Source: a virus. From it: a stretch of DNA of 23,559 nt. Position 1 is the stretch's first letter; each line of letters begins with the position of its first letter. The notes under the pieces were generated by a model. It was not told the origin of the DNA. It was given only the letters and a program-made list of their open reading frames with translations, and did not search any database. The stretch is taken from IMG/VR virus record IMGVR_UViG_3300009106_000032, positions 1 through 23,559 of that record; one strand, written 5' to 3'. Positions 6,653-21,640 of the stretch are shown here, piece by piece. Position numbers and translations under genes: made by a program.

Positions 6653-6660
6653 TATAAATA
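6653..6660 (+). promoter_or_regulatory. T4-type late promoter for the 6703-11820 block
   Basis: Exact TATAAATA in the gap after gp41, 42 bases before the ATG at 6703, leaving room for a start near 6668 and the AGGA ribosome site at 6691-6694. Downstream genes are virion-type and holin-like, as expected for gp55/gp33-dependent late transcription. Confidence 0.8.
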
Positions 6661-6702: not shown

Positions 6703-7050
6703 ATGGCTGATGTAGAAGAGGTTGTAAGTAAAGAAACCCGCAAAAAGATGGCTCGTAATATGGCTAAGATAGCCAAGAAGTCCTCTACCAAATTAAAGAA
6801 AGCACGTGCGGCTATGAAGGTTGCGACGCCTGAAAAGATACAGGCAAAGGCCGCCAAGAAAGCTAAAGATGTAATGGTAGGCAAGCTAATTGGTGATAAA
6901 AAATGGGCAGACTTATCTGATGCAGAGAAGACCCAAATAGAAAAGAAATTAGCCAAGAAGAAAGGTGCTATTGCCAAATTAGCTAAGAAATTAGCCAAAC
7001 AAGTGAAGAAGGATGAATTAGCTAAAGTTAAGAAAAATAGGGAAGGATAA
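6703..7050 (+). CDS. Lys/Ala-rich basic protein, conserved in marine T4-like phages
   Basis: A 115-residue, very basic, Lys/Ala-rich protein with no cysteine and almost no aromatic residue. Most of it looks helical: a KKMARNMAKIAKKS stretch, a central KARAAMKVATPEKIQAKAAKKAKDVM segment, and a KKLAKKKGAIAKLAKKLAKQVKK tail. I recognise the pattern of a conserved late gene of marine T4-like phages, generally unannotated or listed as structural. Its composition recalls histone-like or core proteins and suggests DNA or prohead-core binding (inference). AGGA lies eight bases before the ATG and a late promoter lies upstream. The stop overlaps the next start (TAATG), coupling it to the ligase-like gene. 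Confidence 0.75.
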   Translation: MADVEEVVSKETRKKMARNMAKIAKKSSTKLKKARAAMKVATPEKIQAKAAKKAKDVMVGKLIGDKKWADLSDAEKTQIEKKLAKKKGAIAKLAKKLAKQVKKDELAKVKKNREG

Positions 7051-8279
7051 TGTATAACTTCTCTAGCTTTCTGGTCTCTTCTCTAAATGAGGCCAAGAAT
7101 ACACATATGACTCATATTGAGGACCTAGTTCTTGATGGTGGTGTTAATGGTACGAGAGATGCTATAAATGCTATAAGATCCCTTCGTGATATGCTTGGTG
7201 GTACAACAAACTCTTCTCATTCTGTCACTGTTAAGTGGGATGGTGCACCAGCAGTCTTTGCCGGTATAGATCCTTCGGATGGTGAGTTCTTCGTTGCCAA
7301 GAAGGGTATATTTAATAAAAATCCTAAAGTATATAAATCCCATTCTGATATAGATGCTGATACCTCAGGGGATTTAGCTACTAAGTTAAAGATAGCCTAT
7401 ACAGAATTAAAGAAACTTGGTATATCTAATGTCATGCAAGGTGATATTATGTTTACTAAAGGTGATCTCAAAAAAGAAAAGATTGAAGGACAATCATACA
7501 TTACATTCCATCCCAATACTATTGTATATGCAGTACCCTTTGATCAAGCAGATGAGTTATTGAATGCTAAGATTGGTGTGGTATGGCATACTAAGTATGA
7601 AGGATCTTCTTTTGAGGATATGAGTGCATCTTTTAATGTTGATATTACTGGTCTTAGGAAGAGTAAATCCGTTTGGATGCGTAGTGCAGATCTTGAAGAT
7701 TTAAGTGGTACCGCTACATTAACTGCAGATGAAACAACTTTGGTTAATTCCCATTTATCTAATGCTGGAAAGATCTTTAGAAAAATATCAGCAAGTACAT
7801 TAAAAGGTGTTGCTGGGAATTCTGAGATTAATCTCTTAATTAACACTTTCAATAATACTAAAGTTAGAAGTCAAGAACGCATTACGAATCCTAAGAAGCA
7901 TACCTCTGAATTAATAGATTGGATTACTGCTCGATACCAAGGCCAGATAGATAAACTTAAAAGCGTAAAGGGAAAGGAACGAAAAGGCCTAGCTCGTGAT
8001 GAAACCCTTAAATTCTTCTCCACGACCAATAAAAATAATTTATCATTGATGTTCGAATTGCAGAACCATTTGGTTGATGCAAAAGAGATACTGATTAATA
8101 AAATGAATGAGGTATCTAGTATTTCTACATTCGTAAGGACCACTCAAGGATTTAAAGTATCTGGCACTGAAGGTTATGTTGCTATTAATAGAGATGGCAA
8201 TGCCGTTAAGCTAGTTAATAGAATGGAATTCTCTGCTAATAACTTTTCAAAGAATATCATAAAAGGCTGGGAAAAATGA
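7050..8279 (+). CDS. Ligase-like nucleotidyltransferase superfamily protein (DUF6267-type)
   Basis: A 409-residue protein that I recall as the DUF6267 family of marine T4-like phages. It carries hallmarks of the covalent nucleotidyltransferase fold of DNA/RNA ligases: motif I KWDG (K62-G65) in a TVKWDGAPAVFAG strand-turn; a QGDIMF stretch (130-135) that could be a motif III/IIIa region; EGYV (374-377) matching motif IV; and VKLVNR (386-391, K387) resembling motif V. About 300 residues separate motifs I and IV, far more than in ordinary ligases, so an insertion or a divergent layout is present. The N-terminus (MYNFSSFLVSSLNEA) resembles the T4 capsid-targeting sequence MKTYQEFIAEA. Substrate unknown. 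It starts on the stop of the basic protein and ends on the ATG of the next nucleotidyltransferase. Confidence 0.75.
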   Translation: MYNFSSFLVSSLNEAKNTHMTHIEDLVLDGGVNGTRDAINAIRSLRDMLGGTTNSSHSVTVKWDGAPAVFAGIDPSDGEFFVAKKGIFNKNPKVYKSHSDIDADTSGDLATKLKIAYTELKKLGISNVMQGDIMFTKGDLKKEKIEGQSYITFHPNTIVYAVPFDQADELLNAKIGVVWHTKYEGSSFEDMSASFNVDITGLRKSKSVWMRSADLEDLSGTATLTADETTLVNSHLSNAGKIFRKISASTLKGVAGNSEINLLINTFNNTKVRSQERITNPKKHTSELIDWITARYQGQIDKLKSVKGKERKGLARDETLKFFSTTNKNNLSLMFELQNHLVDAKEILINKMNEVSSISTFVRTTQGFKVSGTEGYVAINRDGNAVKLVNRMEFSANNFSKNIIKGWEK

Positions 8280-8887
8280 AGAAGATCGCAATCACATTTG
8301 GTAGACTAAACCCACCAACTATAGGGCATGGTAAGTTAATTGATGCACTAAAGAAAGCTGCACGTGGATCTGAATATAGAGTCTATCTATCCCAGACACA
8401 AAATAAGAAAAAAGATCCTCTATCATATAAAGATAAGATTAAGTATGCAAGGTTAATGTTCCCATCTCATTCTCTTTATATAATGGAGGATAAAGACGTA
8501 CGTACTGCTTTTGATCTTTGGGTTAAAGTATACAATGAGGGTTATGAATCAATCACTATGGTGGTTGGCTCCGATAGAGTAAGAGAATTTAAAAGTCTCA
8601 TAGAGAAATATAATGGTAAAGAGGGCAGACATGGTCTCTATGATTTCAAAGAAATAAATATAGTGTCTGCAGGAGAAAGAGATCCTGATGCCGAAGGCGT
8701 TGAAGGTATGTCAGCTTCAAAGATGAGAGAAGCCGCTAAGAATAACGATTTTGAAGCGTTTAAGAAAGGATTACCGCCAAGTTTTAAAAAAGATGAGGAG
8801 TTATTCAAACTTCTTCAAAGCGAAATGAATATAAAATCATTTATGGAGTGGGAACAATTGCTTGGATTCAATCACCATCCTTTATAA
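8276..8887 (+). CDS. HIGH-motif nucleotidyltransferase (cytidylyltransferase/NMNAT-like)
   Basis: A 203-residue protein of the alpha/beta-phosphodiesterase nucleotidyltransferase fold. The nucleotide-binding FGRLNPPTIGH (residues 8-18) is the GxxxPxTxGH form, and GMSASKMR (144-151) is the ISxTxxR-type signature that closes the active site; a VVGSD strand lies at 97-100. Such enzymes transfer AMP or CMP to a phosphate, as in nicotinamide-nucleotide adenylyltransferase; the exact substrate cannot be assigned. The C-terminus (MNIKSFMEWEQLLGF) also shows a short F-x-x-[WF]-type amphipathic motif. The ATGA overlap with the ligase-like gene implies joint translation, and both sit in the late block. 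A role in NAD or nucleic-acid end chemistry is inference. Confidence 0.8.
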   Translation: MKKIAITFGRLNPPTIGHGKLIDALKKAARGSEYRVYLSQTQNKKKDPLSYKDKIKYARLMFPSHSLYIMEDKDVRTAFDLWVKVYNEGYESITMVVGSDRVREFKSLIEKYNGKEGRHGLYDFKEINIVSAGERDPDAEGVEGMSASKMREAAKNNDFEAFKKGLPPSFKKDEELFKLLQSEMNIKSFMEWEQLLGFNHHPL

Positions 8888-8890
8888 ATA
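8883..8890 (+). promoter_or_regulatory. T4-type late promoter overlapping the end of the HIGH-motif gene
   Basis: Exact TATAAATA that contains the upstream gene's stop codon (TAA at 8885-8887). The next gene starts 24 bases later behind a strong AAGGAGAT ribosome site (8903-8910), leaving a very short leader. It probably boosts transcription of the downstream virion-type genes. Confidence 0.7.
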
Positions 8891-20995: not shown

Positions 20996-21640
20996 ATGAT
21001 TGATTTCAATACTTTTAATGCGCTGAATGCACTTAATGCGCTGAATGCACTTAATGAAAATGTTAAGAATCTATTAATTAAGGATATGGAGCTGAAGAAG
21101 AAGTATTCTTTAGAGGTTTGGAGTATACTTCAAGAGGCATATTCTTCTATTGGTGGATTAAAGGGGTCTGGATTTAATAGTGTAGATGATATGATTGAGA
21201 ATATCCCATTTTGGAAACTTATCATGAAAGACTCTATTGTACATGGAGTAGTTATGTATAAGGATTCAGGAGGCAGAAAGGCAGTTGCTCTTGGGGTTTT
21301 AAAAGGTTCTAGCTATGGCATAACCATGATTAAGAGTATCTTTAAGGATACTTTTAAAGTTTCATTTGGAGAGTTGAGTAAAGCTGCACTTAATATGGCT
21401 CTAAAGTCCGTACCGGATCAAGTTATTCGTCAATTGATACATACCCCTGAAAGCGCTGAAAAGATCCTAGGGAAGGAAACTACACCTCTTAAGGATATAC
21501 CTAAGGATGAATGGCCATCAGATGCTATAGTAACTATTAAAAAGTTTCCATGGCTCCTAGATTATGGTTACATAAGAATGCTTAAGGGTAAACCATATTT
21601 TAAGGTATTAATTGGTAAAGAGGGTTTACAAATTAAATAA
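20996..21640 (+). CDS. Conserved late phage protein with N-terminal NAL repeats
   Basis: A 214-residue protein whose first residues are MIDFNTFNALNALNALNALNENVKN; the NAL copies come from a DNA tandem repeat. The rest matches a marine T4-like family with the segments SLEVWSILQEAYSSIGGLKGSGFNSVDDMIENIPFWKL, VMYKDSGGRKAVALGV and KKFPWLLDYGYIRML, often kept in late regions; no activity is known. The M-x-x-F-x-x-F opening resembles T4 capsid-targeting sequences, so packaging into the head is possible (inference). A late promoter stands directly upstream. The ribosome site is weak. Confidence 0.65.
   Translation: MIDFNTFNALNALNALNALNENVKNLLIKDMELKKKYSLEVWSILQEAYSSIGGLKGSGFNSVDDMIENIPFWKLIMKDSIVHGVVMYKDSGGRKAVALGVLKGSSYGITMIKSIFKDTFKVSFGELSKAALNMALKSVPDQVIRQLIHTPESAEKILGKETTPLKDIPKDEWPSDAIVTIKKFPWLLDYGYIRMLKGKPYFKVLIGKEGLQIK
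21017..21052 (+). repeat. 18-bp tandem duplication inside the 20996 gene
   Basis: Two exact copies of AATGCGCTGAATGCACTT (21017-21034 and 21035-21052); each is itself a pair of diverged 9-mers. They encode the repeated Asn-Ala-Leu in frame. Slippage expansion is the likely origin. Confidence 0.9.

What the first reader, a model, noticed from the sequence alone, without database searches (positions are those of the whole stretch)
7050..8279. Late-expressed ligase-like nucleotidyltransferase with an unusually long gap between motifs
Seen: KWDG (K62), EGYV (374-377) and VKLVNR (386-391), the order of motifs I, IV and V of covalent nucleotidyltransferases. Family knowledge: DNA/RNA ligases and capping enzymes use the motif I Lys as the AMP/GMP carrier. 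Inference: the protein adenylates itself and acts on a nucleic acid end or another acceptor, but the layout (about 300 residues between I and IV) differs from known ligases, and the gene sits in a late, virion-type operon rather than with replication genes.
Basis: partly seen in the sequence, partly recalled or inferred. Interest (0 to 1): 0.75.

Follow-up and report, generated by a model that had tools for sequence, protein, structure and literature searches.

The report
Head-packaged ligase-like enzyme of marine phages
A family of marine T4-like phages makes, late in infection, an enzyme built like an RNA ligase; in this phage's own branch it begins with a short tag like the one phage T4 uses to pack proteins into its head, so it is probably injected into the host together with the DNA.

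Summary
In detail: K62, E374 and K387 are real. Among 371 distinct homologues K62 never varies, and E374 and K387 never vary where aligned. The ORF is Pfam DUF6267/PHROG 455, of unassigned function. AlphaFold2 models (pLDDT 87-88) resemble covalent nucleotidyltransferases: for the insert-less form, all 50 rows listed by VIA-align are RNA or DNA ligases, led by Naegleria RNA ligase (Z 8.6). Sequence profiles do not reach ligase families. The long I-IV gap is mostly a helical insert (226-353) that short cyanophage homologues lack; motif III- and IIIa-like segments lie inside the gap. 'Late' is supported: a T4-type late promoter starts this three-gene operon and recurs in relatives. New finding: in the window's clade the protein starts with a T4-like capsid-targeting leader (M..F..[FYH][IL].E|A, then KNTH), 50 of 109 sequences against 0.05 expected. 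Leaderless homologues begin exactly at the predicted cut. The same leader sits on the neighbouring NMNAT-like cytidyltransferase, which others found in cyanophage virions. Best reading: a head-packaged, injected RNA-ligase-like adenylyltransferase working with that partner, perhaps repairing nucleic-acid ends early in infection. Activity and packaging of this protein are untested.

The parts
6653..6660 (+). T4-type late promoter TATAAATA heading the three-gene operon
   Evidence: All four + strand copies in the window lie 34-50 nt before an ORF. In clade loci 0.27/kb on the coding strand against 0.023/kb on the other.
6703..7050 (+). Lys-rich 115-aa protein, first gene of the operon; its stop overlaps the DUF6267 start
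   Evidence: Homologues in 57/152 own-clade loci. C48C1 CDS0088, similar in composition and placed next to DUF6267, starts MLSFKQFVSE.
7050..8279 (+). DUF6267 (PF19782) / PHROG 455 ligase-like nucleotidyltransferase, 409 aa
   Evidence: Pfam E 4e-104; PHROG 7e-96; model pLDDT 86.9.
7050..7091 (+). N-terminal leader MYNFSSFLVSSLNE, predicted head-protease cut after E14 (LxE|A)
   Evidence: Leader statistics; pLDDT under 50 at 1-4 and 6-18; leaderless homologues start at MKNTH.
7233..7244 (+). Motif I, K62-W-D-G; predicted nucleotide-bearing lysine
   Evidence: K62, D64, G65 in 371/371.
7287..7313 (+). FFVAKKGIF, invariant K85; resembles LFKSKGSI after motif I in T4 Rnl1
   Evidence: the equivalence is inferred.
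7437..7445 (+). Motif III-like Q130-G131-D132 (Asp where ligases have Glu)
   Evidence: Q130 and D132 in 371/371; on a strand in the model.
7509..7529 (+). Motif IIIa-like HPNTIVY (154-160); cf. APTNRIVLAY in T4 Rnl1
   Evidence: Y160 371/371, P155 370, N156 369; Rnl1 sequence.
7725..8108 (+). All-helical region 226-353 between motifs IIIa and IV; largely missing in the 295-320-aa cyanophage homologues
   Evidence: Secondary structure; short forms.
8169..8180 (+). Motif IV, EGYV (374-377)
   Evidence: E374 367/367 ungapped; EGYV is also in T4 Rnl1 and Rnl2.
8205..8222 (+). Motif V, VKLVNR (386-391)
   Evidence: K387 and R391 366/366 ungapped.
8276..8887 (+). Partner gene: NMNAT-like HIGH-family cytidyltransferase, overlapping DUF6267 by 4 nt
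   Evidence: downstream neighbour in 125/152 own-clade loci; fused to DUF6267 in S-PM2.
8883..8890 (+). Next late promoter, at the end of the operon

Best explanation
The gene encodes a covalent nucleotidyltransferase with an RNA-ligase-like catalytic domain and a family-specific helical insert. It is transcribed late from its own T4-type promoter. In this clade it carries a capsid-targeting leader that takes the precursor into the prohead core; the gp21-type protease removes it after E14, and the mature enzyme, starting near A15-K16, is ejected into the next host with the DNA. There K62 is loaded with AMP (from ATP or NAD+), and the protein, probably in a complex with the NMNAT-like cytidyltransferase encoded next door, most likely seals or caps ends of nucleic acid (for example host-cleaved RNA) before phage genes are expressed. 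Shown: motif conservation, operon structure, promoter and leader enrichment. Predicted: the fold. Inferred: packaging of this protein, adenylylation, acceptor and purpose.
For: Fold: window model pLDDT 86.9; the 20 best VIA rows are all RNA ligases; insert-less model pLDDT 88.4 gives 50/50 listed rows RNA or DNA ligases, best 6vt3 Z 8.6, 175 aligned, rmsd 3.8. Foldseek's top rows are also mostly ligases, without significance. Catalytic residues invariant in 371 homologues. Late promoter in 101/112 own-clade loci within 2.5 kb upstream, strand-biased 12-fold. Leader: 134 N-terminal matches against 2.0 by shuffling, 2/9153 at internal Met; DUF6267 of this clade 50/109 against 0.05. T4 IPII/IPIII begin MKTYQEFIAEA; T4's CTS is about 10 N-terminal residues, and gp21 trims IPI-III and Alt (PMC9958956). 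The neighbour with the same leader is in virions by mass spectrometry: S-CREM2 ORF154, MKNFSSFLTEA; S-SZBM1_140, MRFRQFIIEA. S-SCSM1 ORF91 NMNAT is also reported in virions (PMC9602691). Relative C48C1 encodes head maturation protease, scaffold and late sigma factor. Partnership: adjacency, fusion in S-PM2.
Against: No profile link to a ligase family: no Pfam ligase hit, no ligase in a PDB profile search, hhalign probability at most 2%. Foldseek E-values are not significant (0.09 at best). Motif III has Asp instead of Glu, and only about 20 residues follow motif V. The leader regex was written after seeing the sequences. DUF6267 itself is not listed in the published virion tables checked (S-CREM2 ORF87, S-SZBM1 gp135), though those forms have no leader. 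The Syn1-like clade has the leader on neither gene (80/80). Exact TATAAATA is rare upstream in other clades. The authors of a virion study allow for carry-over in CsCl purification.
Confidence: 0.5

Rival explanations
1. It is a covalent nucleotidyltransferase but not a nucleic-acid ligase: it adenylylates a protein or small molecule, or takes part in NAD metabolism with its NMNAT-like partner (NAD+ as AMP donor, NMN recycled by the partner).
For: Partner resembles NMNAT-type enzymes and is fused in S-PM2; little follows motif V, so no C-terminal ligase module; C48C1 also carries an annotated NAD synthetase.
Against: Best structural neighbours are RNA ligases; kinase-like genes nearby in some clades fit end repair.
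Confidence: 0.25
2. It is a replication-associated DNA ligase that replaces T4 gp30 and works inside the infected cell.
For: It follows polymerase, UvsX and helicase, and no DNA ligase is annotated in the first 150 kb of the relative C48C1.
Against: Late promoter and leader; in C48C1 it lies about 22 kb from the helicase; no OB-type domain after motif V; RNA ligases rank above DNA ligases.
Confidence: 0.12
3. It is an assembly factor or dead enzyme with a ligase fold, as T4 Rnl1 doubles as tail-fibre attachment factor.
For: Late expression; T4 rnlA is annotated as RNA ligase and tail fibre attachment catalyst.
Against: All catalytic residues are invariant in 371 homologues, not expected of a dead enzyme.
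Confidence: 0.1
4. The leader is not a packaging signal; the protein is a cytoplasmic late enzyme.
For: Several clades lack the leader on DUF6267, so the enzyme can work without it; no direct virion evidence for DUF6267.
Against: Same leader on virion-detected neighbours, near identity to T4's CTS, and the cut point coincides with the start of leaderless homologues.
Confidence: 0.2

Closest known systems
DUF6267 (PF19782) / PHROG 455 / T4-LIKE GC 71
   Same: Full-length match; this is its family.
   Different: No function or structure on record; no paper in the library names it.
RNA ligases: Naegleria Rnl, T4 Rnl1 and Rnl2, TbREL1, Trl1
   Same: Predicted fold and the order of motifs I, III-like, IIIa-like, IV, V; EGYV identical to T4 Rnl1 and Rnl2.
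   Different: No sequence-profile match; Asp at motif III; helical insert before motif IV; no added domain after motif V; capsid leader.
T4 internal head proteins IPI-III and Alt
   Same: Late genes with a short N-terminal leader ending in [IL]xE; diverse cargo behind one leader (PMC3012670).
   Different: Cargo is a ligase-like enzyme, unrelated to IPs or to the Alt ADP-ribosyltransferase; packaging not shown.
Virion-associated cytidylyltransferase/NMNAT of cyanophages
   Same: Orthologue of the adjacent gene; leader and virion detection.
   Different: A different enzyme class; in this window it lacks the leader while DUF6267 has it.

Membership tests
DUF6267 (PF19782) | Profile match above the curated cut-off | tested here: met
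   349 bits against a cut-off of 27, residues 17-401
Covalent nucleotidyltransferase superfamily | Motif I KxDG with invariant Lys | tested here: met
   371/371
Covalent nucleotidyltransferase superfamily | Motifs IV (E-G) and V (K) in order | tested here: met
   E374 367/367, K387 366/366 ungapped
Covalent nucleotidyltransferase superfamily | Motif III Glu and motif IIIa aromatic | tested here: inconclusive
   Q-G-D132 and HPNTIVY160 sit where expected, but with Asp; residue-level superposition not available
Covalent nucleotidyltransferase superfamily | Nucleotidyltransferase fold | tested here: met
   Predicted models only: VIA rows all ligases, Z up to 8.6; Foldseek not significant
Covalent nucleotidyltransferase superfamily | Lys-AMP or Lys-GMP intermediate | not testable with these tools
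   Needs labelling with ATP, GTP or NAD+
Known RNA or DNA ligase families | Sequence-profile match to a ligase family | tested here: not met
   No ligase in Pfam or PDB profile searches; hhalign with Rnl1/Rnl2 at most 2%
Known RNA or DNA ligase families | OB or other substrate domain after motif V | tested here: not met
   Only 18 residues follow R391, forming a helix and short turn
T4-type head-packaged (CTS) cargo | N-terminal leader like IPII/IPIII ending in [LI]xE | tested here: met
   Clade 50/109 strict against 0.05 expected; the window copy is a longer IPI-like variant that matches only the looser pattern
T4-type head-packaged (CTS) cargo | Late expression | tested here: met
   By promoter sequence only
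T4-type head-packaged (CTS) cargo | Present and trimmed in virions | tested here: inconclusive
   Not listed for leaderless DUF6267 of S-CREM2 and S-SZBM1; leader-bearing partner detected; no data for leader-bearing DUF6267

The most novel reading that the evidence does not exclude
Marine T4-like phages inject a preformed nucleic-acid repair set, a head-packaged ligase-like adenylyltransferase with an NMNAT-like partner and in some phages a P-loop kinase, that reverses host RNA cleavage or NAD loss before phage transcription begins; the leader marks a wider, exchangeable set of injected cargo in these phages.
Probability: 0.28. Interest if true: 0.82.

Novelty: new variant of a known kind. Interest (0 to 1): 0.62.

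Why it matters
DUF6267 is present in at least 468 sequenced phages, mostly of marine cyanobacteria, with no assigned function. A structural class and a delivery route give direct tests. The leader also offers a sequence handle for finding other injected proteins in abundant ocean phages, where, as far as the library searched shows, it has not been described.

Tried and rejected
Sequence search for ligase relatives: phmmer and profile against PDB, Pfam, NCBIfam and hhalign against Rnl1/Rnl2 alignments built here found nothing significant; the best local hhalign stretch does pair motif IV-V with Rnl1 in the right register. Capping enzymes appear in Foldseek but not among the VIA rows shown; this does not exclude them. 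Exact TATAAATA was not found upstream in most HTVC008M-like or cyanophage loci, so late expression there is not claimed. Bacterial genome contigs with DUF6267 are mostly marine MAGs and were not pursued; they may be phage contigs. The P-loop kinase in pelagiphage cassettes could be a Zeta-toxin-type enzyme rather than a polynucleotide kinase, so it is weak support only. A first leader regex (LxE[AS] in the first 22 residues) was too loose (14% of background) and was replaced. One search failed on an input error. Upstream cassette proteins gave no informative families apart from one GNAT acetyltransferase.

Full report
What was checked. The ORF at 7050-8279 encodes 409 residues with KWDG from 62, EGYV at 374-377 and VKLVNR at 386-391, as stated. 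It is a full-length member of Pfam DUF6267 (E 4e-104) and PHROG 455 (E 7e-96), the 'T4-LIKE GC 71' cluster of cyanophages. tblastn finds it in 468 phage records, nearly all marine T4-like phages. No paper in the library searched names the family.

Conservation. Homologues were collected from IMG/VR with queries from four clades. In 371 distinct sequences K62, D64, G65, P67, K85, Q130, D132, Y160, H180, T181 and Y183 are invariant, and E374, K387 and R391 are invariant wherever aligned. Q130-G131-D132 and HPNTIVY (154-160) sit where motifs III and IIIa are expected, and T4 Rnl1 has APTNRIVLAY after its motif III. These two assignments are inference, because residue-level superposition was not available. 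Conserved H19, H22, E24, D25 before motif I and HTxY (180-183) are features of this family.

Fold. The window protein was modelled with 40 homologues (pLDDT 86.9, pTM 0.81). Foldseek against the PDB listed mostly DNA ligases and capping enzymes at the top, but without significance (best E 0.09). VIA-align put RNA ligases in the first 20 places (Naegleria Z 8.2, TbREL1 7.8, T4 Rnl1 7.7, Trl1 7.6, T4 Rnl2 7.3). Many cyanophages have a 295-320-residue form that lacks most of the helical region 226-353 and keeps the motifs. Its model (pLDDT 88.4) matched RNA or DNA ligases in all 50 rows shown (Naegleria 6vt3 Z 8.6, 175 aligned, rmsd 3.8). Z near 8 is modest alone, but the uniformity of the list is not expected by accident. 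Sequence profiles do not link the family to ligases, so it is ligase-like, not a member of a known ligase family. The long spacing between motifs I and IV is thus largely an insert.

Expression. TATAAATA occurs on the + strand at 387, 6653, 8883 and 20962, each 34-50 nt before an ORF. In loci of this clade it is twelve times commoner on the coding strand (0.273 against 0.023 per kb) and lies within 2.5 kb upstream of DUF6267 in 101 of 112 loci, either just before it or before an extra gene. The unit is 6653 promoter, Lys-rich 115-aa protein, DUF6267, cytidyltransferase, with overlapping start and stop codons. So late expression is supported, although the neighbours upstream are polymerase, UvsX and helicase.

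Leader. DUF6267 of this clade begins with sequences such as MLTFQEYVTEA, MKSFKQNLSEA or MYTFKQHIIEA, then KNTH. T4 IPII and IPIII begin MKTYQEFIAEA and IPI begins MKTFKEFTSTTTPVSTITEA; T4's CTS is about ten N-terminal residues and gp21 trims IPI-III and Alt (PMC9958956). The window copy, MYNFSSFLVSSLNEA, is a longer, IPI-like variant that fits only the looser pattern. A strict pattern matched 134 N-termini against 2.0 expected from shuffling, and 2 of 9153 internal methionines; for DUF6267 of this clade 50 of 109 against 0.05. The pattern was written after seeing the sequences, so the contrast with internal methionines and the independent virion data matter more than the ratio. Residues 1-18 are mostly disordered in the model, and leaderless homologues begin MKNTH or MPNKH, at the predicted cut. 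The closest annotated relative, C48C1, has MMLDFKNFITE|QKNTH and encodes a head maturation protease.

Neighbours. The NMNAT-like cytidyltransferase lies next to or near DUF6267 in most loci and is fused to it in S-PM2 (591 aa). In S-RIM2-like cyanophages the partner carries the leader (MKKFSAFLTEA) and DUF6267 does not; in the window it is the reverse. The leader-bearing partner was detected in virions of S-CREM2 (ORF154, MKNFSSFLTEA) and S-SZBM1 (S-SZBM1_140, which by length and position is gp136, MRFRQFIIEA). S-SCSM1 ORF91, an NMNAT, was also reported in virions. DUF6267 itself is not in the S-CREM2 or S-SZBM1 tables, but those copies have no leader. Authors caution that such proteins may be carry-over. 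In the Syn1-like clade neither gene has a leader. Other cassette genes carry leaders too, including one GNAT acetyltransferase. Pelagiphages add a P-loop kinase related to Zeta toxin and more weakly to polynucleotide kinase.

Conclusion. Well supported: nucleotidyltransferase motifs, late operon, enriched leader. Predicted: ligase-like fold. Inferred: packaging of this protein, adenylylation, acceptor, and the idea of early end repair. Rough probabilities: covalent nucleotidyltransferase 0.85; packaged in this clade 0.7; true nucleic-acid end-joining 0.4.

Noticed in passing
L460:2557-3934: Three consecutive genes upstream of a short DUF6267, with different bodies, carry nearly the same leader MKTFSQFI[IT]EA; one is a GNAT acetyltransferase. 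Looks like a cassette of capsid-targeted cargo.
   Followed up: partly
L082:9730-10392 (HTVC008M 106562-107224): P-loop kinase (Zeta_toxin PF06414 E 3e-13; PHROG polynucleotide kinase 8.5e-8) between DUF6267 and cytidyltransferase; homologues in 51/77 pelagiphage-type and 26/152 own-clade loci.
   Followed up: partly
L058, L065, L066, L067, L068, L039, L044 upstream genes: Proteins of very different length share a leader followed by LLPKK; T4 Alt has NLYPKK shortly after its own leader.
   Followed up: no
window 20996-21640: ORF behind a late promoter begins MIDFNTFNALNALNALNALNEN, with a tandem NAL repeat near the N-terminus.
   Followed up: no
window 6703-7050: Lys-rich 115-aa protein, also similar to part of the 722-aa cytidyltransferase of phage DLP6; possibly a DNA-contacting internal protein.
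   Followed up: partly
L320:4896-7961 (S-RIM2): The cytidyltransferase is 1021 aa: the product is fused to a homologue of Syn9 gp185, so cassette genes fuse and split between phages.
   Followed up: no
L488:16399-17709 (C48C1 major head protein): N-terminal region contains GGFLTE|TGPTNSVAGG, a possible head-protease site of the same [LI]xE type.
   Followed up: no
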